Assembly: GCF_013745115.1 (NCBI RefSeq)
Contig: NZ_CP051151.1
Coordinates: 744,001-808,000 of the forward strand
Direction of reading: 5' to 3'
DNA from: Hujiaoplasma nucleasis
Lineage (GTDB): Bacteria; Bacillota_I; Bacilli_A; Izemoplasmatales; Hujiaoplasmataceae
Length of the DNA: 64,000 nucleotides
The notes below the pieces were generated by a model. That model did not search any database and was not told the DNA's origin. It was given only the letters and a program-made list of their open reading frames with translations. The translations under genes and the position numbers were made by a program. Below are positions 32,816 through 63,584 of this stretch, one piece after another. Numbering within the stretch: position 1 is the first letter of the stretch; each line of letters starts with the position of its first letter.

Positions 32816-33940
32816 TTACCTCTTAATAAATTCAAAAATACCTGAGACTTCATTTATTTTATTATAAGAAATCTCATACAATTCATTTAACTTACTTTTT
32901 ATATATATCTCATTTATTGGATAATATTCCTCATCATCCCAGATTGATTCATATTTAAGATGTAGATTTTCCATATCCACTAAATTAAATGTTGAAACAT
33001 CACCAATCAAAATTTTAGCTTGGTATTTAAGATATTTGTTCAATCTTATTAATAAGTTTATTTGACTTTCATAATCAAGATGATGAATTGAATAATTGAA
33101 TATGATAAAGTCGTATTGATCATTTAATCTTTCTAAAGAATTGTAGAAACTATCACAAACAAAAATCGCTTTTGGCAACTTCTTTTGAGCTATATTGATC
33201 ATCTTTTCTGATAGATCTACGCCTGTAATCTCATATCCTAAATCATATAAGGGACTGGTAATTTGTCCAGTACCTATACCCATATCAAGTATCTTTGCGG
33301 TTGTTTTTTTGCTTATGATATCCAATATTTGATATTTAATTTTTGAATAGCCTGCAAATGGATAAGTGCCTTCCTCTTCTGATTTAATGATGCTCTTATT
33401 ATAATTTATAGACCAAGAATCAAAAAGGTCTTTTCTTAATTTATCTTCTATATTTAATACAAATTTAGTATTTATTGGGTCTTTTTCCTTTTCTACAAAA
33501 CCATTTTTATAATGAAACTTTAATGATTGTTCATTATGATTTCTAACAAAAGAATAAATCTCTTTTATATTCTTTCTTTTTAAGTCATAGAGGACTTGTA
33601 TAAGCAAGGAACTTGCATAACCTTGACGATAATAGTCTCTATGTGTCTCTAATCCTTCAAGATAATAAGCTTGATTCTTTAATACTATTCTTAATAGTGA
33701 GACAATAATCCCACCAGATTTTCGTAATATATAATAAGCATAAAAATCTGGATCAACTGAACAACTTTTTAAGTAGTCAATATAGTCTTTCTTAATAGAT
33801 TTTCTTATCTCTTCTATATTGGGGGTAGATAAGTCATATCCCCTATCTTCTTCTAAACCTTGATTTAATACATCAAACCATTGATCTTTATCCATAGGAG
33901 ATAGATTTTTTATCTTATCATTATTCCAGACTTCAAGCAT
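32816..33940 (-). CDS. GNAT acetyltransferase-methyltransferase fusion, copy 1
   Basis: 374 residues in two domains. Residues 1-165 are a GNAT domain with YRQGYASSLLIQVL as acetyl-CoA loop and SFVRNHNEQSLKFHYKNGF. Residues 180-374 are a class I SAM methyltransferase with ILDMGIGTGQIT (motif I, about 215), VDLSEKMI and NYSIHHLDY. It is a same-length, clearly similar paralogue of the gene at 42654-43778, including the leader (AGAGGTG five bases before the start). Acceptor molecules are unknown; dual modification of one substrate is a reasonable inference. Confidence 0.85.
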   Translation of the reverse strand: MLEVWNNDKIKNLSPMDKDQWFDVLNQGLEEDRGYDLSTPNIEEIRKSIKKDYIDYLKSCSVDPDFYAYYILRKSGGIIVSLLRIVLKNQAYYLEGLETHRDYYRQGYASSLLIQVLYDLKRKNIKEIYSFVRNHNEQSLKFHYKNGFVEKEKDPINTKFVLNIEDKLRKDLFDSWSINYNKSIIKSEEEGTYPFAGYSKIKYQILDIISKKTTAKILDMGIGTGQITSPLYDLGYEITGVDLSEKMINIAQKKLPKAIFVCDSFYNSLERLNDQYDFIIFNYSIHHLDYESQINLLIRLNKYLKYQAKILIGDVSTFNLVDMENLHLKYESIWDDEEYYPINEIYIKSKLNELYEISYNKINEVSGIFEFIKR

Positions 33941-42610: not shown

Positions 42611-42661
42611 TGTCTTGTCTTTATGGACTTTATCTGTTTTTGTGCTAAAAATTTCATATTT
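42611..42661 (-). repeat. Dispersed 3' repeat, copy B (short)
   Basis: TGTCTTGTCTTTATGGAC then GTGCTAAAA-TTCATATTT, lacking the internal units. The TGA stop codon of the GNAT-methyltransferase gene lies inside its TTCATATTT end. Confidence 0.7.
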
Positions 42662-43778
42662 TTAACAACTCAAATATACCTGTTACATCATTTATTTTTT
42701 TATAATAAATCTTATAATATTTCTTAAGTTCACTATTTCGATATATATTTACTATAGGATAATATTCTTCATCATCCCAAATAGAATCGTATTTCTCCTG
42801 TAGTTGTTTAATATCTTTTGTGTTAAGCGTTGATACATCACCAATAATAATCATTCCATGGTCACTAAGATAATCATAAACATTTAGAAGAAGATCTATA
42901 TGATTTTGATAGTCAAGATGATGAATCGAATAATTGAAAATGATAAAATCATACTGATTATTCAACTTAGCTAGAGAGTTTTGGAAAGTATCACATATGA
43001 ACATTGCATTTGGCATTTTGCTTTTTGCCAAGTCTATCATTTTATCTGATAAGTCTACACCTGTTATATTGTATCCTAAATCATGTAAAGGCCCCGTAAT
43101 TTCTCCTGTACCAACACCCATATCTAGAATACGTGCATATGGTTTTTTCGTAATCATATCAATAATTTGATATTTGACTTTAGAATATCCCGCAAAAGGA
43201 TATGTTACTTCTTTTTCTGATTTAATGACACTTTTATTATAGTTGGTGACCCAGTTATCAAACAAATCTTTTCTTATTTGATCCTCAACATTTAAGATGA
43301 GTTGGATGTTTAAATCATCCTTATTTTCTACTCTAAATCCATTTTTATAATGGAAATTTATTGATTTATGATTATGATTTCTCACTATGGAATAGATGGT
43401 TTTGATGTTGTCTCGTTTTAACTCATACATTACTTTATTAAATAACTTACTAGCGTAGCCTTTATAATAATAATCTCGATGCGTTTCTAAACCCTCTAGA
43501 TAATATTGATTATCAACAATCACTATCCTACAAACAGATACAATCTTTCCATCATCATCCCGTAATATATAATAAGCATAGAAGTTCTGATTTTTTTCAC
43601 AGCTTTTTAAATAATCAATATAGTCCGTTTTAATACCAGCTCTAATATCTTCAATGTTAGGTTCTGATAAATCATATCCTCTATCTTCTTCAAGTCCTTG
43701 ATTAAGAACATCAAACCATTGCTCGATTTCTGTTTGAGATAAATTGCTAATTCTTTGCTTATTCCAAATTTCAAACAC
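42654..43778 (-). CDS. GNAT acetyltransferase-methyltransferase fusion, copy 2
   Basis: 374 residues, exactly the length of copy 1, with matching domains throughout: GNAT residues 1-165 (YYKGYASKLFNKVM, RNHNHKSINFHYKNGF) and methyltransferase residues 180-374 (ARILDMGVGTGEIT, VDLSDKMID, NYSIHHLDY). The start appears to be GTG with AGAGGTG five bases upstream, as in copy 1. It has no carbon-nitrogen hydrolase after it; the RDD-nucleotidyltransferase follows instead. Roughly half or more of the residues are identical to copy 1 by eye, so the duplication is old. Confidence 0.85.
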   Translation of the reverse strand: MFEIWNKQRISNLSQTEIEQWFDVLNQGLEEDRGYDLSEPNIEDIRAGIKTDYIDYLKSCEKNQNFYAYYILRDDDGKIVSVCRIVIVDNQYYLEGLETHRDYYYKGYASKLFNKVMYELKRDNIKTIYSIVRNHNHKSINFHYKNGFRVENKDDLNIQLILNVEDQIRKDLFDNWVTNYNKSVIKSEKEVTYPFAGYSKVKYQIIDMITKKPYARILDMGVGTGEITGPLHDLGYNITGVDLSDKMIDLAKSKMPNAMFICDTFQNSLAKLNNQYDFIIFNYSIHHLDYQNHIDLLLNVYDYLSDHGMIIIGDVSTLNTKDIKQLQEKYDSIWDDEEYYPIVNIYRNSELKKYYKIYYKKINDVTGIFELLKI

Positions 43779-43854: not shown

Positions 43855-44954
43855 ATGAATTACACATTAGAGTTAAAAAAGCGTATCACTAAAAAATACC
43901 AGAAAGGAGAAAGCGTCTCAAACTTATCAAAATATTATAATATTCCCAGGACCTCTATCTATAACTGGATAAATAAACTTTCTAAAAAATCATTTCATGA
44001 ATTATCTATCAGTAAAAGACAACTTTATGAGTATCAAAGAAAGATAGAAAAACTTAACAGAGAGAATCAAATCCAACATTATATAATATCAAATCTTAAT
44101 ATCCCTAAAAGAAATAAGATTGATTTGGTATATTTACTAGAAGAAAAATAATATCCAATCAAAGCAATTTGCAGGGTACTTAATCTAAATACTTCTACAT
44201 TCTACCATGATAAGAATAGAAAACCTGTGGTATATCAAGTTGATGAAGAAGATGAACAATTTAAACCATTAATATTATCTATATTTAATAATTCAGCTGG
44301 TAGATTTGGCGGACGTAAAATTCGTATCTTATTGAAAAAGATAATTATGTGATCAGTCACGCTCGTGTCGTCAGATTAATGAATGAAATGAATCTTAAAC
44401 CCAACCAACCTGATGAAAACTATAATAATTATCATAAAAGGAAATAATAATATAAACCAAACATAATTTCCAAATCCGATCATTATCCAGAAGTTAATAA
44501 AATTTGGGTTAGCGATATCACATATATCCGCGTGAGGAAAGAACACTATTATTTGACTGTAATTATCGACTTATATTCTAGAAAAGTTATAGTTCATAGT
44601 TTGGCTAAAACTTTAGAAGCCTCAGAATTAATCAATCTAATGAAAAAGACGTATTATATTCGAAACAATCCTAAAAAGTTAATATTCCATAGCGATCAAG
44701 GACAACAATATACATCCAAATCATTCAAAAGTTTACTCAAAGAAAATGAAATTACGCAATCATTTTCCAAGAAAGGTTGTCCCTATGATAACTTAGTTGT
44801 CGAGAGTTTCTTTGCGAGTTTAAAGAAAGAAGAAATTCATCGTCACATCTATAATAATTTTGAGGAATTAGAAAAAGTTATTGACGAATATGTTGTCTTT
44901 TTTAACACACAGCATAGCAGAGCATACTTTATAGAAATGATTAAAGAAAAATAA
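43855..44954 (+). mobile_element. Decayed IS3-family insertion sequence (IS150-like)
   Basis: OrfA-like HTH protein at 43855-44151 (98 residues, ITKKYQKGESVSNLSKYYNIP). OrfB follows in the same frame after a TAA, with a frameshift near 44338 and a double TAA near 44447, so it is dead. The DDE catalytic triad is still readable in the 44532-44954 frame: WVSDITYI, FHSDQGQQYTS and VVESFFASLKKE. The C-terminus is truncated (FFNTQHSRAYFIE then stop). No terminal inverted repeats or target duplications could be identified. Confidence 0.85.
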
Positions 44955-44997
44955 AAATGTGAACCGAGTAGATTAACTCTACCGGTTCACATTTTTT
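44954..44997. terminator. Bidirectional terminator of the hydrogenase operon
   Basis: Arms AAAATGTGAACCG and CGGTTCACATTTT with an imperfect upper stem and T runs on both strands; it abuts the hydrogenase stop codon. Confidence 0.85.
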
Positions 44998-46381
44998 AAG
45001 ATTGTTTAGATGATTTTCCGAATGTATCAACCTTCATCTTATCTTTAAGAGAGTGAGAAATACTACCTGGACCGCCTATACAACCGCCTACACATGACAT
45101 ACCTTCAATAAAATGACCAATGTTGACATGGTTTTTAATTTTGATTAATGCTTTTTTACATTCATCTATTCCATTACAAGAGAAGGGCTCAAATTTAAAA
45201 CCTTCGATATTTTTTTTGTTTACTTGATGCTGAATCGATTCAATCAAACCACCACTTCTTGCGAATATACGACCGTAATAACTGGCATCATTAATTGCAA
45301 TCGATTCACATGCTGATATATCAATATGTTGACTATCAAACAAGGCATCTAATTCTTCAAATGTCAATACAGCATCTATATAAGGAGAGACATTTGGAAG
45401 TTTTGCTTCGCCTTTTTTAGCTATACAAGGACCAATGAAAACACATTTGTTATAAGGATTTGATTTCTTAATTAATTGACCTACAACAGCCATTGGAGAT
45501 AGATTATGAGATATATGCTGCACTTGATCAGGATAATGTTTTTTTATCAATGATACAAAGGCAGGACAACAAGAACTTGTTAAAAAGCCTTTATCAATCA
45601 GTTCTTCTGTTTCTCGTTCAGAAACAATATCAGCACCCATCGCGGCTTCTACCACTTCATCAAAACCCAGTTTAATTAAAGCGCCGATGATGTTTTCTGG
45701 CATATATTGGTGATATTGGCTGGCAATAGATGGAGCAATAATCGCCACAACCTTAGATTGAACAGTTTTTTTCTGAATATAGTCGATGACATCAATGATA
45801 TATGATTTATCAACCATCGCTCCAAAGGGACATTGAACCACACATGCGCCACACGATATACAACGTTCATGATCAATCACAGCCACTTTATTCTCATCCA
45901 TTCTAATGGCGTCAACTTTACAAGCAGCCACACACGGACGTTGATTATTTTTAATCGCTGAATAAGGACATACCTTTGCACATAAACCACATTCAATACA
46001 TTTTTCCTTATCGATCATTGCTCGGTTATGCGAATCAAATGATATTGCATTTTTAGGACAAACACTTTGACATTTATGAGCCAAACATCCTCGACATCCA
46101 TTGGTCACTTCATAGCCACCAACTGGACATTCATCACAAGCTATATCGATTACTTCAACGATATGTTTAGATCTCGAACCACCAACTGCGAGTTTTACTC
46201 TTTCAGCTAAAATGGCTTGTTCTTTATACACGCAACATCTTGAAATTGGCTTTCTTGTAGGATTAATTGTCTTTGGAATATCCAACAAATGATCATACAA
46301 CTGATGGTGCCAAGCATGTGTTGCGACTTCTTTTAAAACTTTATACTTAATATACTCTACTTGCGTATCAAACTTTCTCAT
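44996..46381 (-). CDS. [FeFe]-hydrogenase, monomeric group-B-like
   Basis: 461 residues from ATG 46381 (AGGTGATAATT upstream). An N-terminal Cys-rich region has several ferredoxin-type [4Fe-4S] motifs (CRGCLAHKCQSVCP, CIECGLCAKVCP, CISCGACVVQCP; about residues 95-205). The H-cluster domain then has all three signature loops: TSCCPAFV (about 270), FIGPCIAKKGE (about 325) and EGMSCVGGCIGGPG (about 435). It therefore should bind an H-cluster and make or use H2 with ferredoxin. No HydE/F/G maturases are in the window. Last gene of the Rex-led operon. Confidence 0.88.
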   Translation of the reverse strand: MRKFDTQVEYIKYKVLKEVATHAWHHQLYDHLLDIPKTINPTRKPISRCCVYKEQAILAERVKLAVGGSRSKHIVEVIDIACDECPVGGYEVTNGCRGCLAHKCQSVCPKNAISFDSHNRAMIDKEKCIECGLCAKVCPYSAIKNNQRPCVAACKVDAIRMDENKVAVIDHERCISCGACVVQCPFGAMVDKSYIIDVIDYIQKKTVQSKVVAIIAPSIASQYHQYMPENIIGALIKLGFDEVVEAAMGADIVSERETEELIDKGFLTSSCCPAFVSLIKKHYPDQVQHISHNLSPMAVVGQLIKKSNPYNKCVFIGPCIAKKGEAKLPNVSPYIDAVLTFEELDALFDSQHIDISACESIAINDASYYGRIFARSGGLIESIQHQVNKKNIEGFKFEPFSCNGIDECKKALIKIKNHVNIGHFIEGMSCVGGCIGGPGSISHSLKDKMKVDTFGKSSKQS

Positions 46382-46390
46382 AATTATCAC

Positions 46391-47560
46391 CTAAAAATAG
46401 CTCATTGTTATTTGTTTGCCCATGTCTTTTAATGCATGACTTAATGCTTCAACCAATTGCATTTTAATATTAAACTGTATCGGTAAGTCCGGATTTTGAT
46501 GTGCAGGATTGATGGCCTGTCCAACATAGAAATGGATGTCCGTTGACTTCTCTATGAGCATTCTAGTTAACAAAGAAGCACCATCCTTTTTATAACCCCA
46601 TCTTTGATAGGTCTGATTGTCTTTAACATAGTCTTTAATATTTTCTAACACCTTGTTGATGGTAATTACCCCTTCAGTCACTAAATCTACCCCAGGAATA
46701 AAAGCAATGGGAGGAATGTTAGGGTCAACATACTCAATGGATGTCTTTAAATCTTGATGCAAATACCTTGCGACCAACTCTGAGGTAGTACCTCCACATA
46801 TCACCTTTTTTCCTGTCTTAGAGAAAAATAGTTTCATTACACGTTGATCATCAAAATTCTTTTTTGGTGGACCAATCATTAGATGTAAAGGTTCTCTTTT
46901 TACGACTCTAGCAATACCTACTGTGGTATCATCGCCAGGTTTATATGCATACAATTTTTCACATTTTTCTAGCAATATTTTAACTAAATTTTTAGCAGTA
47001 ATATCGGCTCTATAAAAAGCCTTCATATAATCAAAAATTTGCTCTTTCTGCCAACCAAAATTAAATTCATTACCAACCCCAGCATATACACATCCATCAC
47101 TCATTGAAATAAAAATATCTTCCTCTTTTAATTCTAAAGATGCATAATAAATCTTTTTCCCAGATACTTCTTTCTCAACTCGGCGAATCGGATAATCGAT
47201 TGAATCTCTAATTAAGATTACTTCAGGGTTATCAAATTCAATGATTTCCACTCGAGTTGAATCAATAAATCTCATCACTGTAAATGTTGAATATGCAATC
47301 CCGCGTTTTTTACATATAGGTAAAGTATGAGCTATTGTTTCAATACAATCTTTTAAACTCATACCTTGAGAAATCATTGTCGATATGATTTTGGATGTGA
47401 GTGTTGAAAGAATACTTGCTTTAACCCCACTTCCTAAACCATCAGCTAAAACGATGACCAATTGATCATTTTGATTAACGACATCAATATGATCACCACA
47501 AATAGGCTCTAGATATTTATTTAATGATCCATAGTCAAATTCAATAAACAAACTATTCAT
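46391..47560 (-). CDS. SpoIIE/PP2C-family phosphatase of the hydrogenase operon
   Basis: 389 residues. N-terminal about 220 residues are a SpoIIE-type PP2C phosphatase with metal Asp residues in IVLADGLGSG, FISMSDGC and PGDDTTVGI. The remaining 170 residues form a domain beginning LMIGPPKKNFDDQR with VICGGTTSELVARYL, which I cannot name but which looks conserved in this kind of operon. It overlaps the PAS-hydrogenase gene by 8 bp. It probably dephosphorylates a Ser/Thr target in response to the sensor hydrogenase. Confidence 0.85.
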   Translation of the reverse strand: MNSLFIEFDYGSLNKYLEPICGDHIDVVNQNDQLVIVLADGLGSGVKASILSTLTSKIISTMISQGMSLKDCIETIAHTLPICKKRGIAYSTFTVMRFIDSTRVEIIEFDNPEVILIRDSIDYPIRRVEKEVSGKKIYYASLELKEEDIFISMSDGCVYAGVGNEFNFGWQKEQIFDYMKAFYRADITAKNLVKILLEKCEKLYAYKPGDDTTVGIARVVKREPLHLMIGPPKKNFDDQRVMKLFFSKTGKKVICGGTTSELVARYLHQDLKTSIEYVDPNIPPIAFIPGVDLVTEGVITINKVLENIKDYVKDNQTYQRWGYKKDGASLLTRMLIEKSTDIHFYVGQAINPAHQNPDLPIQFNIKMQLVEALSHALKDMGKQITMSYF

Positions 47561-49232
47561 CTAAGATTTGCTCCTTCAAATGTGTTAAAGCAATCTTCGT
47601 TTCAGCCGCTGTTTCACCTAATAAAGATGCAATCTCTTGAACAATTCGCATTTGTTTTTCAACCACTTGATCAGTCACTTCAATGGTTTGCTTGCTCATT
47701 AATACTTTATTCTTGCGATTGATGATTTCTTGTGAAATATCATCAATGATGATCATTGTAATCCGATAATTATCATCATAAACAATGGTTTCCTTAACTG
47801 TTTTTTTGTACTCAGCCAAGTAGACATTTTTATGATTGACTTGAGTGTGTTTATGCAATATATCTTCTAAATCTTTATGATTTAAGATATTAAATATTTT
47901 CTCTCCTAAGATATCGCGTCGATGATGAATATTAAATATCCTCTTAGCCATTTTATTAAATTGTTGAATTTCTAATTGTTCATTTAAAACAATAATTCCT
48001 GATGGCGTATGATCTAAAATATTATGAAAAAAACTTTCTGCTCTTTCCTTTAGAAAAGGTAAACACATGGTGAAATCGGCCTTACCCTGATGAATCGCTA
48101 AAGCTTTCTCTCTACAGGTATTATAGCCACATGATCCACAATTCAGCTCATCCATAGGATTGTTTTTCCCCATTTGTTTTAAAATGCTAGATATCTCTTC
48201 AATGGTTGGTTCATTTCTCTTTTTAGTGATTGGCATAAAATATTTCGTTAAACTTTTCGATGTTTTTCTTCCTAAGTTATGCTCACCAGCATAATCAACA
48301 ATACGCAAATAATCCCTTAAAGGTGTTTTGTGGTGTTTTTCCATAATTGGACCACCGACACAACTCCCCTCACAAGCAGACATCTCAATAAAGCAATGAG
48401 TTAGATTCCCTTTTCGTATATCATCTAAAGTGGCCATACATCTTTCAACGCCATCGATTGATAAGTAATGAATATCATCGTTATAATGATTTAAACTTTT
48501 AATGATACCACCATTGGTTGGAAAGAATCGCGATTTAAAAGGTTCATCGTCTTTATCACCATTCTTGTACTGATTAAATGACATACCTTTCTCTTGAATC
48601 ATCATTGACAATTCATCAAAAGTTAATACGGCATCAATAAAACCGGGGTATGAATCTGCTTCATCCTTTTTAGAAATACAAGGACCAATAAATACTACCG
48701 CAGCATCTTGATATCTAGTTTTTATATCTTGCCCATGTGCTTGCATAGGTGACTTAACCGGAACTAAATACTCTAATAAATCAGGATAATATTTTTGAAT
48801 CAATAAATTGACTGAATGACAAGCTGAAGTGATCAAAATAGAAGGTTGATATTGTTCCAAATAATCTTGATAAGAATCTTTAACCCATTCTGCCGCAATC
48901 GCTGTTTCTTCAACATCATAAAAACCTAGCTCAATTAATAACTCTCTTAAAACATCAATATCGACACCATCATAATTGGCTATAAAAGATGGCGCAATAC
49001 TTACTATCACTTTTTCTTTTTGTTGAAGCAATACCTTAACCTTCTCTAAGTCACTCGATATTTCTTTCGCATTTTGAGGACAATGGACGTAACATCTTCC
49101 ACATAAAATGCACTCACCAGGAACGACTTTCGCTTGATGTGTAGTAAATTCAATTGATTTTACAGGACAGTTTCGGATACATTTATAACAATTTTTACAT
49201 TGGTTTTTGTTTAATATGATATATTCATTCAT
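47553..49232 (-). CDS. PAS-containing [FeFe]-hydrogenase-like sensor (group C, HydS-like)
   Basis: 559 residues. Domains in order: two [4Fe-4S] motifs (CKNCYKCIRNCP, CILCGRCYVHCP; residues 12-50), an H-cluster-type domain (about 75-330), a CGSCGYNTC iron-sulfur domain ending FTMCLPF (about 365-395), a PAS domain (about 405-490) and a C-terminal helix. H-cluster loops are altered: TSACHSV replaces TSCCP, while FIGPCISKKDE and EMSACEGSCVGGP are kept. PAS without a kinase domain suggests signal output through the neighbouring phosphatase and kinase-like proteins. It is likely a sensor of H2 or redox state, not a bulk catalyst. Confidence 0.85.
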   Translation of the reverse strand: MNEYIILNKNQCKNCYKCIRNCPVKSIEFTTHQAKVVPGECILCGRCYVHCPQNAKEISSDLEKVKVLLQQKEKVIVSIAPSFIANYDGVDIDVLRELLIELGFYDVEETAIAAEWVKDSYQDYLEQYQPSILITSACHSVNLLIQKYYPDLLEYLVPVKSPMQAHGQDIKTRYQDAAVVFIGPCISKKDEADSYPGFIDAVLTFDELSMMIQEKGMSFNQYKNGDKDDEPFKSRFFPTNGGIIKSLNHYNDDIHYLSIDGVERCMATLDDIRKGNLTHCFIEMSACEGSCVGGPIMEKHHKTPLRDYLRIVDYAGEHNLGRKTSKSLTKYFMPITKKRNEPTIEEISSILKQMGKNNPMDELNCGSCGYNTCREKALAIHQGKADFTMCLPFLKERAESFFHNILDHTPSGIIVLNEQLEIQQFNKMAKRIFNIHHRRDILGEKIFNILNHKDLEDILHKHTQVNHKNVYLAEYKKTVKETIVYDDNYRITMIIIDDISQEIINRKNKVLMSKQTIEVTDQVVEKQMRIVQEIASLLGETAAETKIALTHLKEQILDE

Positions 49233-49476
49233 GATGATTCAAAACCTTTAACACATAAGTATTAAACACTGTTTCAACATCACTAGGTTCAACAGAAATC
49301 ATTTGTTGATTAATCGTTACATTCACTCCTTTTTGACACTGTCCCATACAAAACTGCCCAAGTAACTTGACTTCATCTGTCAGTTGATGTTTTTCTAGTA
49401 ATCGTTGAAATTGCTCCACAATCATTCTTGATCCTTTTAAATGGCATGAACTGCCAATACATATCTTAATAACCAT
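49225..49476 (-). CDS. Thioredoxin-like [2Fe-2S] protein (NuoE C-domain type)
   Basis: 83 residues with the four-Cys pattern of the thioredoxin-fold [2Fe-2S] proteins: ICIGSSCHLKG (Cys 6 and 11) and GQFCMGQCQKGVNV (Cys about 43 and 47). It lacks the N-terminal helical part of NuoE/HydC. It is embedded between the kinase-like gene (11-bp overlap) and the sensor (8-bp overlap), with GGAGGAGAAC as ribosome site. It probably passes electrons between the hydrogenase-like proteins and a partner. Confidence 0.88.
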   Translation of the reverse strand: MVIKICIGSSCHLKGSRMIVEQFQRLLEKHQLTDEVKLLGQFCMGQCQKGVNVTINQQMISVEPSDVETVFNTYVLKVLNHHE

Positions 49477-50227
49477 TGTTCTCCTCCATTGATTGTTGAA
49501 CCAACTTTAATAAGAAGTCTCGTTCAGATTTGATACCACGATTCGATCTAGCCGCTGATACAATTGGAAGCCATGATAAAATTTCTTCTCTTGAGTCATT
49601 TGTTAAATCAATATACATGTTTAAATACATTTCAGCCACTGACCGATCAAACTCAACCCATAAATCTAAAAAGGTATTTGCAATATCAGCCAACTTTGGC
49701 CCTAAAGAAACATGAGCCCAATCGATAATAAATGGTTGATTATTTTCATCAATGATAATGTTCCCTGGAAAAAAATCACCGTGGCATAAAAATAAATCTG
49801 ATTTCTTTTGATCTAACGACTGTCTTACAAACATTCTCACTGTTGCACTTAACATTGAATCTTCAATTTTATACCCAAGCTTATCTTTCATTTTGGATAA
49901 CATCGGCGCTTTAGTATGATGGACTTTAATTTGTAACTCTATAAACTGTTTTAAATATTCATTAAATCTCGATGGATGCTCCTGCATTAATCGCAACAAA
50001 GTTTTTCCCTTGATAAATGACAGTTCAATCACCCAATGATTATTTTCTTGATAGACAGCTCTTACCTTAGGGACATTTAAATCCGTTTCTTCTACTTTCG
50101 CCAAATTCAAAGCTTCGTTTAAGACCTGTGACTTTTTATAATGATGGTTAAAAACCTTAATCACTCGAGTACCATCTTTATATATCGTTTTATCGGTTCT
50201 TACACCAATAATTTTTTCATAATCCAT
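49466..50227 (-). CDS. APH/choline-kinase-fold phosphotransferase
   Basis: 253 residues. The catalytic loop LCHGDFFPGNII (about residue 147) and metal Asp in PFIIDWAHVSLGP (about 165) are the Brenner-type motifs of aminoglycoside-phosphotransferase-like kinases. An N-terminal ATP-lobe Lys is likely in TRVIKVF. It overlaps rex and the ferredoxin gene by 11 bp each, so it belongs functionally to the hydrogenase operon. A protein or small-molecule kinase opposing the PP2C phosphatase is a testable inference; resistance to an antibiotic is less likely in this setting. Confidence 0.82.
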   Translation of the reverse strand: MDYEKIIGVRTDKTIYKDGTRVIKVFNHHYKKSQVLNEALNLAKVEETDLNVPKVRAVYQENNHWVIELSFIKGKTLLRLMQEHPSRFNEYLKQFIELQIKVHHTKAPMLSKMKDKLGYKIEDSMLSATVRMFVRQSLDQKKSDLFLCHGDFFPGNIIIDENNQPFIIDWAHVSLGPKLADIANTFLDLWVEFDRSVAEMYLNMYIDLTNDSREEILSWLPIVSAARSNRGIKSERDFLLKLVQQSMEENNGY

Positions 50228-50822
50228 GATTTTTTCTCCGATCGTTATAATGTTTAATCAATATCGACAAAGATACAGCCAAATTTTCGTTTTGGACCAC
50301 CACATCAGATGGAACATTAAGACGTGTTGGAGAAAAATTCCATATCGCCTTAATACCTGCCTTAATGATTATATCTGATATTTTTTGCGCTTCATCCTTC
50401 GGTACAGTCAAAATCGCAACATCAATATGATGCTCTTGGCAATATTCGTTCAACTGATCAACATGTATAAACGATTCCCGAATATCAAAGGCACCAATAA
50501 TTTCGATATGATATTGTTGGAAACCATGATAGTTATATAAAGAACGACCTAACTTTCCCATACCAATGATCACTGCGTTTGTAGGTTGATCAAAACCCAT
50601 ATACCGCTCTATATCAGCTTTTAAATCGTTTAATATATACCCTACTTTTGGTTTTCCCCCTCGACTGATCTTGGCCAAGTCCTTGCGAACTTGAACTTCT
50701 CCTAGGCCTAAATCTTTAGCCAAAATAGAAGCGGATACATAATCACTTGAATATTGACTTAATTGGTTTAAATAGATTGGTAATCTCTCTAAAAAAGCCT
50801 CTGTTTGACAATTTTGTAACAC
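50217..50822 (-). CDS. rex: Redox-sensing transcriptional repressor Rex
   Basis: About 201 residues from a GTG at 50822 (GGGGGCG upstream; a TTG at 50852 is an alternative). N-terminal winged helix with SASILAKDLGLGEVQVRKDLA (wing and recognition region, read in part), then the Rossmann motif VIIGMGKLGRSLYNY for NADH, and the domain-swapped C-terminal helix with LSILIKHY. Rex senses the NADH/NAD+ ratio and represses fermentative and hydrogenase genes. It heads the operon and probably controls it; its own upstream region carries twin palindromes. Confidence 0.93.
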   Translation of the reverse strand: MLQNCQTEAFLERLPIYLNQLSQYSSDYVSASILAKDLGLGEVQVRKDLAKISRGGKPKVGYILNDLKADIERYMGFDQPTNAVIIGMGKLGRSLYNYHGFQQYHIEIIGAFDIRESFIHVDQLNEYCQEHHIDVAILTVPKDEAQKISDIIIKAGIKAIWNFSPTRLNVPSDVVVQNENLAVSLSILIKHYNDRRKNHGL

Positions 50823-50884
50823 TCTATCACGCCCCCATAGATATCTTATCAAAACGGTAATATAAAATATAATATCAAAAATAA

Positions 50885-50910
50885 ATATCGATATATCATT
50901 ATCGATATAT
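50885..50910. promoter_or_regulatory. Twin TATCGATA palindromes upstream of rex
   Basis: TATCGATA occurs at 50886-50893 and 50900-50907, flanked by AT, in the leader region of the hydrogenase operon. It is not the usual Rex box (TTGTGA/TCACAA type), so the binder is uncertain. Confidence 0.4.
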
Positions 50911-50917
50911 ACGTACT

Positions 50918-50948
50918 GATAAAAGAAAAAGCCAACAAATGTTGGCTT
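50918..50948 (-). terminator. Terminator of the lysR gene
   Basis: 9-bp arms AAGCCAACA and TGTTGGCTT with a 2-nt loop overlap the stop codon; the minus strand continues with T-rich sequence. Confidence 0.8.
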
Positions 50949-51876
50949 AAAGTTTTAATAAATCTCGTTTTGACTTTATAATTTCTTCCAAAAATTCATG
51001 GTCTAATGGAGATAATCGATATGACTTTAAATAAATTAGCACGTCTTTATGTACCTTTGATAAATCATCACACTTAATTTGAACCAAATCGTATTTGTCT
51101 AACAAATCATCAGATAAAGGTGATCCCCACATATACGTTGAATGAACCGATGAAAGCAACTCAAATTGACTGGCTCTTTCATAAACAAAAATTCGTCTCT
51201 TAATATCATTTGAGAACTCTTCTTTCTTAACATCAACCATCGATAATGATGGCACATAAGGATCAGCGTGAGCAATCTCGATATATTGTGATAAATCTTC
51301 TAAGAGAATCTGATCTTTTTGAGCCAAAGGATGATGTCTAGACATAAATAGTTGATAAGAGAATTCTGAAATAACTTCATATTTAAATCCTTTTTCTTTA
51401 ATCAATGCTTTGAAATAATTATCATAATTGATTTGATATCGAATGATTGCTAAATTGTAATAAGAGTTTAATATATTATTAATCGCCTTTAAAGAGTTGG
51501 TTTCTTTATAATAGATTTCACATTTTTTTGTTTGGCTCAACTTCTTTGCGAAATTGGTAAATGCATTTGAGATATAACTCGCTCTTGGTACTGATATTGA
51601 AAACTTTGATATAGAAAAATCTTCATTTAAATATAGAGATTCAATATCTCTTACTTCAGATAGAATTTTCTTAGCATAATATAAAAACTCTTCACCTTTA
51701 ACCGTTAGTTTCATTCCTTTTGGTGTACGCTCAAAAATTTGAATATTTAATGAAGATTCCAAATCCTTCATCGCTCTAGATAAGTTTGGCTGAGACATAT
51801 AAAGATTTTCAGCTGCTTTTGATATTGACATGGTCTTTTCAATTTCACAAGCATATTTTAAATGTAATAGATTCAT
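50947..51876 (-). CDS. LysR-family transcriptional regulator
   Basis: 309 residues from ATG 51876. N-terminal HTH is typical: LKYACEIEKTMSISKAAENLY then MSQPNLSRAMKDLE. The effector domain follows and is divergent, so the inducer cannot be told. It lies downstream of etfA on the same strand behind its own promoter (TATAAT just before the GTGATGGGTG leader). It may regulate the adjacent acyl-CoA dehydrogenase-Etf operon or the hydrogenase operon; neither is proven. Confidence 0.9.
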   Translation of the reverse strand: MNLLHLKYACEIEKTMSISKAAENLYMSQPNLSRAMKDLESSLNIQIFERTPKGMKLTVKGEEFLYYAKKILSEVRDIESLYLNEDFSISKFSISVPRASYISNAFTNFAKKLSQTKKCEIYYKETNSLKAINNILNSYYNLAIIRYQINYDNYFKALIKEKGFKYEVISEFSYQLFMSRHHPLAQKDQILLEDLSQYIEIAHADPYVPSLSMVDVKKEEFSNDIKRRIFVYERASQFELLSSVHSTYMWGSPLSDDLLDKYDLVQIKCDDLSKVHKDVLIYLKSYRLSPLDHEFLEEIIKSKRDLLKL

Positions 51877-51899
51877 CAAATCACCCATCACATTATAAC

Positions 51900-51956: not shown

Positions 51957-52943
51957 TTACTTAGTTAACATTTTGTTGATTGCATCAATGACTTTTGAAG
52001 CATCACCAATGATGCCAATATCAGCGACATCAAAAATGGCAGCTGCTGGATTCTTATTGATGGCAATGATTAATCCTGAATCATCCATTCCTGAAACATG
52101 TTGAATTGCGCCTGAAATACCACAAGCAATATAAACATCAGGACGAACAGTTACACCTGTTTGTCCGACTTGGCGACTTTTATCAAGCCAACCACTTTCA
52201 ATCACTGGCCTTGTTCCAGATAACTCACCAGATAATCTTTTAGCAAGTCTTTCACAAATTTTCATCTGGTTGATTGACCCAACACCTCTTCCTACAGATA
52301 CCAACACTTTAGCATCTTGAATATTAATTTTTTCCTTTTCCTCAAACACTTCTTCAAGTAACTCAATGTTCATATCTGATGGCACCAACACTGATTTAAG
52401 TTTGGTGATTTTCGCTTGATGATTTAAGTCGATTTGAGGCTTGACCATAACACCTGGACGAACAGTTGACATTTGAGGACGGTGGTCTGGACAAATGATA
52501 GTTGCCATTAAATGCCCTCCAAAAGCTGGTCTTGTCATCAGCAATTGTCGATTTTCATCAATATCTAGTTCAGTGCAATCAGCGGTTAATCCTGTATGCA
52601 ATCTTGAACTCACTCGTGGTGCTAAATCACGACCTATCGTTGTAGCTCCAATTAATACAACTTCAGGCTTAATTCGATGAATAACTTCAGTTAAGGCTTT
52701 TGTATATGGTTCATTGATGTATTTATCCAAAAGCATATCATCCATCCAATAGATTTCATCTGGACCATATTGATTAATGAGTGGTAATAACCCTTCAATT
52801 TGATAACCTAAAACACAAGCATATAATGATACGTTTAATTGATTCGCTAATTTTCTTCCTGCTCCTAACAACTCAATTCCCACTTGATGCAAAACACCAT
52901 CTCTTTGTTCAATAAAAACTAAAACACCTTGATAATTTTCCAT
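51957..52943 (-). CDS. etfA: Electron-transfer flavoprotein alpha subunit
   Basis: 328 residues from ATG 52943 (GAGGAAATT upstream). N-terminal Rossmann-like half, then the FAD-binding C-terminal half with VSVGRGVGS, ESGWLDKSRQVGQTG, SGAIQHVSGM and INKNPAAAIFDVADIGIIGD, all typical EtfA signatures. It accepts electrons with EtfB from the acyl-CoA dehydrogenase. Last gene of the operon. Whether the complex bifurcates electrons cannot be decided by eye. Confidence 0.95.
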   Translation of the reverse strand: MENYQGVLVFIEQRDGVLHQVGIELLGAGRKLANQLNVSLYACVLGYQIEGLLPLINQYGPDEIYWMDDMLLDKYINEPYTKALTEVIHRIKPEVVLIGATTIGRDLAPRVSSRLHTGLTADCTELDIDENRQLLMTRPAFGGHLMATIICPDHRPQMSTVRPGVMVKPQIDLNHQAKITKLKSVLVPSDMNIELLEEVFEEKEKINIQDAKVLVSVGRGVGSINQMKICERLAKRLSGELSGTRPVIESGWLDKSRQVGQTGVTVRPDVYIACGISGAIQHVSGMDDSGLIIAINKNPAAAIFDVADIGIIGDASKVIDAINKMLTK

Positions 52944-52950
52944 AATTTCC

Positions 52951-53733
52951 TCACAAAACATAGTTTTCTTTTAACTTATCAATAATGATTGTTGCAGCTT
53001 CGCCGGGTGAAACGTCAAATATTTTACCGGCTGACTTAGCGCCTTTAGTGAATGATTTCTTCACTTTTGTAGGAGACCCTTTTAACCCTAATTGATCTAC
53101 AGATATATTTAAATATGAGTTATCCCACACAACAACCAATCCTTCTTGGAAGGCTTGATAGATTTTTCGAACATTCATATATCTTGGCTTATTCAGTTCT
53201 TTCAGCACGGTCATTAAACATGGTTTTTTTACCTTTATTCGATAATATCTATCTTCAAAGTCACGCTTCACAATGAAACCATCTTCAATCACATCAATTT
53301 GACTAACATAGGCCACACTCGGAATCTTCAAATGTTCAGCAATTTGTGGCCCAACTTGGGCGGTGTCACCATCAATTGCTTGTCTTCCAGCAATCACCAA
53401 GTCTGGTTGAATCATTTCAATAGCTTTTGACAAGACCAAACTAGTGACCCAAGTATCGGCTCCGGCGAACAAACGATCAGATAATAAAATGGCCTTATCA
53501 ACGCCCATCGCTAAACATTCTCTTAAAGCCTTATCTGCCTGTAATGGCCCCATTGTTAAAGCAATGATCTCACCACCTGATTGTTCTTTGATTCTAAGTG
53601 CTGCTTCGACTGCTGCCAAATCATCAGGATTGATGATAGATTCAACACCCTCGCGTATCATCGTGCCTGTCACTGGGTCAATTTTAACATTCGCTGTATT
53701 TGGTACTTGCTTAACACAAACAACTATTTTCAT
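52951..53733 (-). CDS. etfB: Electron-transfer flavoprotein beta subunit
   Basis: 260 residues, starting VVCVKQVPNTANVKIDP, with the NPDDLAAVEAAL helix, the nucleotide-binding RQAIDGDTAQVGPQIAEHL and a C-terminal recognition extension. AGGAGGAATCG precedes the ATG. It sits between acd and etfA, spaced 11 and 7 bp, so the three form one operon. In clostridial butyrate pathways the same trio couples crotonyl-CoA reduction to ferredoxin; that coupling is inferred. Confidence 0.95.
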   Translation of the reverse strand: MKIVVCVKQVPNTANVKIDPVTGTMIREGVESIINPDDLAAVEAALRIKEQSGGEIIALTMGPLQADKALRECLAMGVDKAILLSDRLFAGADTWVTSLVLSKAIEMIQPDLVIAGRQAIDGDTAQVGPQIAEHLKIPSVAYVSQIDVIEDGFIVKRDFEDRYYRIKVKKPCLMTVLKELNKPRYMNVRKIYQAFQEGLVVVWDNSYLNISVDQLGLKGSPTKVKKSFTKGAKSAGKIFDVSPGEAATIIIDKLKENYVL

Positions 53734-53744
53734 TTCGATTCCTC

Positions 53745-54884
53745 CTATTTCAACAAGTATGATGCAATGACCATTTTTTGAACTTCTGAAGTTCCTTCAT
53801 ATATTTCCGTGATTTTTGCATCACGCATCATTCGCTCCACTGGATATTCTCTTGAATAACCATATCCTCCATGAAGCTGTATAGCTTTATTTGCCATTTC
53901 TACAGCAACTTCAGAAGCATACAACTTTGCCATCGCAGCCTCTTTGCTAAAAGACATTTTATGTTGTTTATTGTAAGCTGCTCGATAAGTTAATAGACGT
54001 GCTGCATCAATTTTTGTCGCTAAATCAGCTAAAACAAACTGTGTGTTTTGAAACTGTGAAATTGTTTTATTGAATTGTTTTCTTTCTTTAACATAGGTTA
54101 GGGTTTCGTTCAAAGCTCCCTTGGCAATTCCACAAGCTTGAGCTGCTATTCCGATTCTTCCTGAATCTAAAGTACTCATAGCTATTTTAAATCCATAGCC
54201 AGGTTTCCCTAACATATTCATTTCAGGTACTACAACGTCTTCGAATATCAACTCACAGGTTGATGACCCCCTAATACCCATTTTCTTTTCCTTTTTTCCA
54301 ACCGTAAAACCTTTCATTCCTTTTTCCAAAATGAAAGCACTAATTCCTCTTGTTCCTAATGTCCTATCAGTCATGGCCATCACAATAAATACATCAGCAT
54401 ACTCAGCATTTGTAATAAAGATTTTCGAACCATTGATGATATAGTTATTTCCATCCTTAACCGCAATTGTTTCTTGTTTTGATGCATCAGTTCCAGCGTT
54501 TGGCTCAGTTAAAGCAAAAGCTCCGAGTTTTTCTCCAGAGGCCAAAGGCTTCAAATATCTCTGCTTTTGATCTTCCGTGCCATACTCGTAAATCGGTCCC
54601 GCACATAGTGATGTATGTGCCGAAAGAATAACTCCAGTCGTCGCACAAGCTTGAGATAGTTTTTCTACAGCTAAAATATATCCTATATAATCACCATCAA
54701 CGCCACCGTATTGATTCGGAAAAGGAATTCCCATCAAACCCACTTCAGCCATTTTCTTTACAGTTTCTTCAGGGAATCTTTCTAACTCATCAATTTCACT
54801 TGCCAAAGGCTTTACTTCATTGAGTGTAAAATAATCCAACATTTGTTCTAACAACAAGTGCTCTTTATCAAAACTTAAATCCAT
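53745..54884 (-). CDS. Acyl-CoA dehydrogenase (butyryl-CoA dehydrogenase-like)
   Basis: 379 residues from ATG 54884, set by GAGGTGAAAAAA; upstream frame is not needed. Motifs: FALTEPNAGTDAS (FAD/substrate loop), GSKIFITNAEYAD, KMGIRGSSTCEL, RKQFNKTISQFQ, and LHGGYGYSREYPVERMMRDAKITEIYEGTSE in part, the catalytic Glu being in YEGTSE. The size and SCAD-like motif set suggest a short-chain acyl-CoA substrate. The other butyrate-pathway genes are not in the window. First gene of the acd-etfB-etfA operon. Confidence 0.92.
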   Translation of the reverse strand: MDLSFDKEHLLLEQMLDYFTLNEVKPLASEIDELERFPEETVKKMAEVGLMGIPFPNQYGGVDGDYIGYILAVEKLSQACATTGVILSAHTSLCAGPIYEYGTEDQKQRYLKPLASGEKLGAFALTEPNAGTDASKQETIAVKDGNNYIINGSKIFITNAEYADVFIVMAMTDRTLGTRGISAFILEKGMKGFTVGKKEKKMGIRGSSTCELIFEDVVVPEMNMLGKPGYGFKIAMSTLDSGRIGIAAQACGIAKGALNETLTYVKERKQFNKTISQFQNTQFVLADLATKIDAARLLTYRAAYNKQHKMSFSKEAAMAKLYASEVAVEMANKAIQLHGGYGYSREYPVERMMRDAKITEIYEGTSEVQKMVIASYLLK

Positions 54885-54964
54885 TTTTTTCACCTCAAAA
54901 TATGAATATTTATTCACTATAATTATAGGTGATAATTTAATATAAAACAATAACTCAAGGTATA

Positions 54965-63238: not shown

Positions 63239-63584
63239 TGGTGGAGCTGAGGGGATTTGAACCCCTGTCCAAAATAGCCAATCATTTAACCTTCTACATG
63301 CTTAGTAGATTGCAAAGTTTCGATAAACACACGCCAACCTACACACAAATGTTTATCTATTCTTATTCATCTCATGAATACCCTTAAGAAGGCAGGGTCA
63401 TACACTATTCTATATTTCTGGAATTCAAGACAGGTCTATAGACAAACCTGAATGAATTTGCAGCTTCTTCTTAAGCTGCGTAAGCGTAATTTTGATTTCC
63501 GGTTATATTTAACCATGCATTTTTATATCTGCCGATAGCATGCTAGTCAAACTCGAACTACCCTGTCGAATCCAGAACAGCCCC
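63239..63584 (-). ncRNA. ssrA: Transfer-messenger RNA (tmRNA)
   Basis: 346 nt. The 5' end GGGGCTG pairs with 3' CAGCTCC followed by an encoded ACCA, giving the tRNA-like acceptor. GGTTCAAATCC forms the T arm and GGATTCGACAGGG the 5' tRNA-like part. The tag frame reads GNQNYAYAA and stop; an uncoded Ala precedes it, so the tag is probably AGNQNYAYAA. Resume codon GGA is preceded by AUAACC. It starts three bases after the smpB stop codon, so the two may share a transcript. Confidence 0.93.

What the first reader, a model, noticed from the sequence alone, without database searches (positions are those of the whole stretch)
44996..50822. Rex-led operon joining an active-looking [FeFe]-hydrogenase to a PAS hydrogenase sensor, a PP2C phosphatase and an APH-fold kinase
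Six genes overlap or abut (1 to 11 bp), so they are made together. One hydrogenase keeps all H-cluster loops; the other has altered loops plus PAS and no kinase domain. A phosphatase and a kinase-fold protein flank the sensor, which would allow a reversible phosphorylation switch driven by H2 or redox state, with Rex adding NADH control. PP2C next to group C hydrogenases is known in clostridia; the APH-fold gene as a possible kinase partner is, as far as I know, not characterised.
Basis: partly seen in the sequence, partly recalled or inferred. Interest (0 to 1): 0.78.

Follow-up and report, generated by a model that had tools for sequence, protein, structure and literature searches.

The report
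Hydrogen-sensor operon with ethanol-linked kinase
This is a version of a known bacterial hydrogen-sensing gene cluster that has lost its alcohol dehydrogenase gene; its unusual kinase-like gene turns out, across other genomes, to belong first to that alcohol dehydrogenase and only second to the hydrogen sensor.

Summary
In detail: six coupled genes (rex, APH-fold kinase, thioredoxin-like ferredoxin, HydS sensor, SpoIIE-type PP2C phosphatase, group B hydrogenase) lie on the minus strand between two terminators. The operon is not new in kind. Ruminococcus albus 7 plasmid pRUMAL01 has the same order plus adhE, and a kinase next to HydS was proposed there in 2014. The kinase-phosphatase reading is only partly supported. 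HydS and PP2C are together in 115 of 121 loci, but APH is in only about a quarter. In 40 of 49 APH loci adhE lies directly upstream, including 20 of 20 loci away from HydS. Where adhE is missing, as here, APH has diverged about twice as far relative to HydS, yet every catalytic residue is kept. APH therefore looks like an AdhE companion that remained after adhE was lost. I also found a likely operator, TATCGATA-N6-TATCGATA, upstream of Rex: 15 of 32 Rex-led loci have it, 0 of 106 others, and this genome has one exact copy. HydS ends in a near-invariant helix with a strictly Ser/Thr position, a plausible contact with PP2C or site of phosphorylation. No Hanks kinase, STAS protein or anti-sigma kinase was found in the genome. 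New variant of a known kind.

The parts
50947..51891 (-). LysR-family regulator upstream of the operon, with its own terminator
   Evidence: PF00126; 54% identical to LysR next to the R. albus operon; found in 12 of 29 APH+HydS loci
50929..50948 (-). Intrinsic terminator of lysR, separating it from the operon
   Evidence: sequence
50886..50907 (.). Likely operator TATCGATA-N6-TATCGATA; a weaker overlapping third copy reaches 50921
   Evidence: R. albus has the same boxes with N7
50217..50852 (-). Rex, divergent branch (likely start GTG 50822)
   Evidence: NF003994, 214 bits against a cut-off of 130; recognition region VRKDLAKIS-GGKPKVGY differs from canonical IRQDLNCFGGFGQQGYGY
49466..50227 (-). 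APH-fold kinase; catalytic Lys24, Glu38, HGD149-151, Asn156, Asp169 kept
   Evidence: PF01636, alignment, model matches APH enzymes and LicA choline kinase
49225..49476 (-). Thioredoxin-like [2Fe-2S] ferredoxin (HfsA position)
   Evidence: PF01257; present in 105 of 121 HydS loci
47553..49232 (-). HydS, group C [FeFe]-hydrogenase sensor with PAS and a conserved C-terminal helix
   Evidence: loop and tail conservation over 121 sequences
46391..47560 (-). SpoIIE-type PP2C phosphatase with an extra C-terminal domain (residues 223-389)
   Evidence: PF07228; VIA Z 20.5, rmsd 3.0, 210 aligned to SpoIIE 5ucg; no Pfam match for 223-389
44996..46390 (-). Group B monomeric [FeFe]-hydrogenase (HydA2/HfsD position)
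   Evidence: TIGR04105 over cut-off; 57% identical to the R. albus gene
44953..44996 (-). Intrinsic terminator at the end of the operon
   Evidence: -25.8 kcal/mol, z -9.0

Best explanation
This is the hydS/hfs hydrogen-sensing fermentation operon in a form that has lost adhE. Shown from sequence: gene content, order and coupling, intact H-cluster ligands, intact kinase and phosphatase residues, a conserved upstream site, and no AdhE gene found in this genome. Inferred: a divergent Rex represses the operon at the TATCGATA-N6-TATCGATA site and lets go when NADH rises. The operon then makes a ferredoxin-dependent group B hydrogenase plus a slow sensor hydrogenase. HydS turns H2 or redox state into a signal through PAS and its C-terminal helix, and that helix sets the activity of PP2C. 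The APH-fold protein is a working kinase whose main partner in most genomes is AdhE or its pathway. Here it remained after adhE was lost and now serves the same signalling circuit or another substrate under weaker constraint.
For: Same operon on R. albus 7 pRUMAL01: LysR-Rex-adhE-phosphotransferase-2Fe2S Fd-2Fe2S Fd-HydS-SpoIIE PP2C-hydrogenase (identities). That cluster falls 111-fold in co-culture that keeps H2 low (PMC6776011). HydS with PP2C in 115 of 121 loci. adhE directly upstream of APH in 40 of 49 loci. APH/HydS divergence ratio 0.46-0.91 in 21 AdhE+ loci against 0.87-1.52 (7 of 8 at 1.26 or more) in AdhE- loci, with catalytic residues invariant in all. No AdhE match in this genome or its sister G368. 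Operator partition: 15 of 32 Rex-led against 0 of 106 not Rex-led, p 1.3e-11, and one exact copy in 1.8 Mb. HydS tail KQMR..QEIASLLGE[TS]xAETK near-invariant.
Against: No expression, binding or phosphorylation data exist for this organism. The operator could belong to LysR or another protein. The rate test rests on about four independent losses of adhE, and one (L129) shows no acceleration. About half of Rex-led loci, mostly in one family, lack a clear site. The split of adhE+ and adhE- loci depends on fragmented genomes, so some losses could be misjudged.
Confidence: 0.6

Rival explanations
1. One reading: the APH-fold protein and PP2C are a kinase-phosphatase pair that act on HydS or a shared target, giving a reversible switch set by H2.
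For: Overlapping genes; catalytic residues intact; no other Hanks kinase, STAS or HATPase_c_2 found in the genome; APH kept when adhE is lost; strictly Ser/Thr position 541 in the HydS tail; proposed for R. albus in 2014 (cited in PMC5707799).
Against: 86 HydS-PP2C loci have no APH; APH lives without HydS in 33 of 66 genomes that have it, always next to adhE where examined; HydS-linked and unlinked APHs are mixed in the tree; the Ser/Thr tail is conserved without APH as well. A second APH-like gene exists in the genome.
Confidence: 0.25
2. The APH-fold protein is a small-molecule kinase (choline- or thiamine-kinase-like) that acts on a metabolite of the acetyl-CoA to ethanol branch, not on a protein.
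For: Nearest NCBIfam and fold matches are mostly small-molecule kinases: APH(3'), ThiK, LicA choline kinase. Linkage to a metabolic enzyme, AdhE.
Against: Weak matches also to protein kinases (Bud32, StpK7, PknB); no transporter or pathway gene was seen to travel with it; kept in two genomes with no AdhE.
Confidence: 0.3
3. The conserved TATCGATA boxes are the LysR regulator's operator, not Rex's.
For: LysR lies next door here and in R. albus (54% identical); paired boxes about 14-15 bp apart also suit LysR-type regulators (own knowledge).
Against: 0 of 10 loci with LysR but no Rex have the site, while 8 sites lie in Rex-led loci without an adjacent LysR.
Confidence: 0.25
4. The APH gene here is a decaying leftover of the adhE operon with no present function.
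For: Faster divergence where adhE is missing; long branches.
Against: Open reading frame, every catalytic residue and translational coupling kept in both members of the genus at 60% identity.
Confidence: 0.1

Closest known systems
hydS operon of Ruminococcus albus 7 (pRUMAL01, NC_014824.1)
   Same: Same gene order LysR-Rex-APH-Trx-HydS-PP2C-HydB; 42-57% protein identity for the genes compared; same boxes upstream of rex
   Different: R. albus also has adhE between rex and APH and a second Trx-like ferredoxin; box spacing N7 instead of N6
hfsABCD operon of Thermoanaerobacterium saccharolyticum
   Same: HfsB corresponds to HydS and HfsD to HydA2 (PMC13277313); HfsA and HfsC taken as the Trx-like ferredoxin and the PP2C by position (own knowledge)
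   Different: Described as a four-gene operon without rex, APH or adhE; adhE is elsewhere (Tsac_0416), and Rex sites there are the canonical TTGTTA type (PMC5886521)
Group C sensory hydrogenase TmHydS
   Same: Ala at the proton-transfer cysteine position (A131 in TmHydS, A137 here), PAS domain
   Different: This gene sits with PP2C and APH; TmHydS has been characterised as a purified enzyme (PMC10407848)
SpoIIE/RsbU-type PP2C phosphatases
   Same: Catalytic domain fold and metal-binding motifs
   Different: Extra conserved C-terminal domain; no STAS partner found in the genome

Membership tests
hydS/hfs operon | Trx-like ferredoxin, HydS, PP2C and monomeric hydrogenase in this order | tested here: met
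hydS/hfs operon, R. albus type | Rex and LysR at the head with the shared upstream boxes | tested here: met
hydS/hfs operon, R. albus type | adhE in the operon | tested here: not met
   none in the operon; no match at E<=1e-50 in the genome
hydS/hfs operon, R. albus type | expression responds to H2 | not testable with these tools
   reported for R. albus only (PMC6776011)
Group C sensory [FeFe]-hydrogenase | four H-cluster cysteines kept, proton-transfer Cys replaced (mostly by Ala), PAS domain | tested here: met
   criterion from PMC10407848
Group B [FeFe]-hydrogenase | TIGR04105 above its curated cut-off | tested here: met
   530.7 against 450 bits
SpoIIE-type PP2C | PF07228 above cut-off, metal-binding aspartate motifs | tested here: met
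SpoIIE/RsbU partner-switching system | STAS antagonist and HATPase_c_2 kinase present | tested here: not met
   no match in the genome, controls positive
APH-fold kinase | PF01636 above cut-off and catalytic residues | tested here: met
APH(3') aminoglycoside resistance enzyme | equivalog score above cut-off | tested here: not met
   45 against 205 bits
APH-fold protein kinase | phosphotransfer to a protein | not testable with these tools
   no assay
Rex repressor | Rex family model above cut-off, GxGxxG NAD site | tested here: met
   NF003994 214 against 130 bits; GMGKLG
Rex repressor | canonical TTGTTAA-N4-TTAACAA site upstream | tested here: not met
   no site near 50.85 kb

The most novel reading that the evidence does not exclude
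The APH-fold protein is a dedicated AdhE kinase and the HydS-driven PP2C its opposing phosphatase. H2 would then set alcohol dehydrogenase activity by reversible phosphorylation, filling the unexplained link between Hfs and ethanol yield. In the window's lineage the pair would have been re-aimed after adhE was lost. The operon Rex would form a separate branch with its own operator.
Probability: 0.2. Interest if true: 0.78.

Novelty: new variant of a known kind. Interest (0 to 1): 0.52.

Why it matters
How bacteria couple hydrogen pressure to ethanol versus acetate has been open since interspecies hydrogen transfer was described. Deleting hfsB (HydS) raises ethanol yield and adhE expression, and ADH but not ALDH activity changed, which its authors took as a sign of regulation beyond transcription; the link is unknown (PMC5707799). 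A kinase-fold gene that sits directly after adhE in 40 of 49 loci and has diverged further where adhE is gone is a concrete candidate for that link. The operator gives a second testable handle.

Tried and rejected
Canonical Rex site: 22 near matches in the window against 24.7 expected; the only good one (34320) lies inside an ORF and is taken as chance. Pfam and PDB searches with the PP2C C-terminal domain found nothing usable; VIA-align rows nearly all cover residues 2-222, so nothing can be said about the C-terminal fold. Canonical partners of PP2C were sought in the genome and not found; HPr kinase and other kinase families were not searched. The 2014 R. albus paper is not in the library, so its kinase is identified with APH by elimination: it is the only kinase-fold gene in that cluster. 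A fixed 14-bp box spacing misses real sites with 15 bp (R. albus, L136), so the 15 of 32 count is a lower bound.

Full report
What is there. The six genes are as described and overlap or abut. They are bounded by a terminator after the upstream lysR gene and by a very stable one after the last gene. Families: Rex, APH-fold kinase, thioredoxin-like [2Fe-2S] ferredoxin, HydS, SpoIIE-type PP2C and group B hydrogenase. HydS keeps the four cubane cysteines, has Ala where group A enzymes have the proton-transfer cysteine, and carries a PAS domain, as group C enzymes do (PMC10407848). The genome is 1.81 Mb. It also has a group A6 bifurcating-type hydrogenase, so it holds the same three kinds of hydrogenase as R. 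albus. The closest HydS found (63%) is in Mycoplasmatota bacterium zrk2.

It is a known kind of operon. R. albus 7 plasmid pRUMAL01 carries LysR-Rex-adhE-phosphotransferase-ferredoxin-ferredoxin-HydS-PP2C-hydrogenase. The shared genes compared are 42-57% identical (HydS 52%; others). The R. albus cluster is 111-fold down in co-culture, where H2 is kept low (PMC6776011). PMC5707799 reports that Zheng et al. proposed signal transfer from HydS through PAS to an adjacent Ser/Thr kinase; in that cluster the only kinase-fold gene is the APH.

The kinase belongs to adhE first. I collected 121 HydS neighbourhoods from Bacilli and Clostridia genomes plus one MAG. PP2C accompanies HydS in 115, Trx-like ferredoxin in 105 and APH in 29 by rule (30 by eye). 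In 291 Clostridia genomes APH is found in 66 and HydS in 83; 33 have both, where chance would give about 19 (Fisher p 2e-5), and 33 have APH without HydS. In all 20 APH loci fetched away from HydS, adhE is the gene directly upstream. In total that holds for 40 of 49 APH loci. HydS-linked and unlinked APHs do not form separate groups in the tree.

What happened here. This genome and its genus sister G368 have no AdhE match, and in both rex runs straight into APH. A member of the same family (G420) still has adhE before APH. Relative to HydS, APH diverged 0.46-0.91 times as far in 21 loci with adhE, and 1.26-1.52 times as far in seven of eight loci without it (Mann-Whitney p 6e-6, not corrected for shared ancestry; about four independent losses). 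All catalytic residues stay invariant in every copy. The simplest reading is that contact with AdhE or its pathway is what holds the APH sequence in place, and that a second use keeps it alive where adhE is gone.

The operator. Upstream of rex lie TATCGATA boxes 14 bp apart (50886-50907), with a weaker third copy. With at most two mismatches this pattern is found in 15 of 32 Rex-led loci and in none of 106 loci led by another gene. It is the only exact match in this genome, and in four related genomes the best match also lies at this operon. R. albus has the same boxes one base further apart. Loci with LysR but no Rex lack it (0 of 10). The operon Rex differs from canonical Rex in the recognition region (compared in two genomes), and four genomes that carry it also hold a second Rex. 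I therefore favour Rex as its binder, with LysR as the rival.

How it may work. HydS ends in the sequence KQMR..QEIASLLGE[TS]xAETK, near-invariant over 121 proteins whether or not APH is present, with a position that is always Thr or Ser. As HydS and PP2C genes overlap and stay together, I infer that this helix docks on PP2C and sets its activity, much as partner helices do in RsbU-type phosphatases (own knowledge). The usual downstream partners, a STAS protein and an anti-sigma kinase, were not found in the genome, nor was a Hanks kinase. The PP2C substrate is therefore open.

Limits. Genomes are partly fragmented and unnamed, gene calls are mechanical, and loci without adhE near contig ends (L124, L143) were left out of the rate test. 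Nothing here shows phosphotransfer, NADH response or H2 sensing in this organism.

Noticed in passing
L169, L170, L171, L172, L173, L175, L177, L178 (directly after PP2C; e.g. L170:10880-12493): Eight Clostridia HydS-PP2C operons carry a TnpB/Cas12f-like protein (486-537 aa, 29-87% mutually identical) that appears to have lost the RuvC catalytic residues in most or all copies (GIDxG to GI[S/G/V/T]RG, DxN to GxxN) but keeps the zinc ribbon. It looks like a domesticated nuclease-dead TnpB, possibly an RNA-guided repressor.
   Followed up: partly
L170:12494-12625 and the matching 3' flanks of the other seven loci: A conserved structured RNA (TTTGCTGCCGCACC ... CTTACAGAGTAAGC ... GCAGCTATCT) follows that ORF and then a terminator; no Rfam family reached threshold in the five loci searched. 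In L170 a 23-nt exact match joins this flank to a point 142 nt upstream of the Trx-HydS start.
   Followed up: partly
46394-46894 (PP2C residues 223-389): C-terminal domain with strongly conserved motifs (GPP, CGGTTS, PP.A.I.GVDLVTEGVIT, KDGA, VG.AINPAHQNPDLPI) and no Pfam match.
   Followed up: partly
43855-44954: Apparently broken IS3-type insertion element (two ORFs, + strand) just beyond the operon's terminator, judged by eye.
   Followed up: no
42654-43778 and 32816-33940: Two clearly related 374-aa genes that seem to join an acetyltransferase-like and a methyltransferase-like part, judged by eye.
   Followed up: no
51957-54950: EtfA, EtfB and acyl-CoA dehydrogenase, closest to acryloyl-CoA reductase subunits but below the curated cut-offs, on the same strand upstream of lysR; a possible source of reduced ferredoxin.
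   Followed up: no
63239-63584: tmRNA (RF00023, 157 bits).
   Followed up: no
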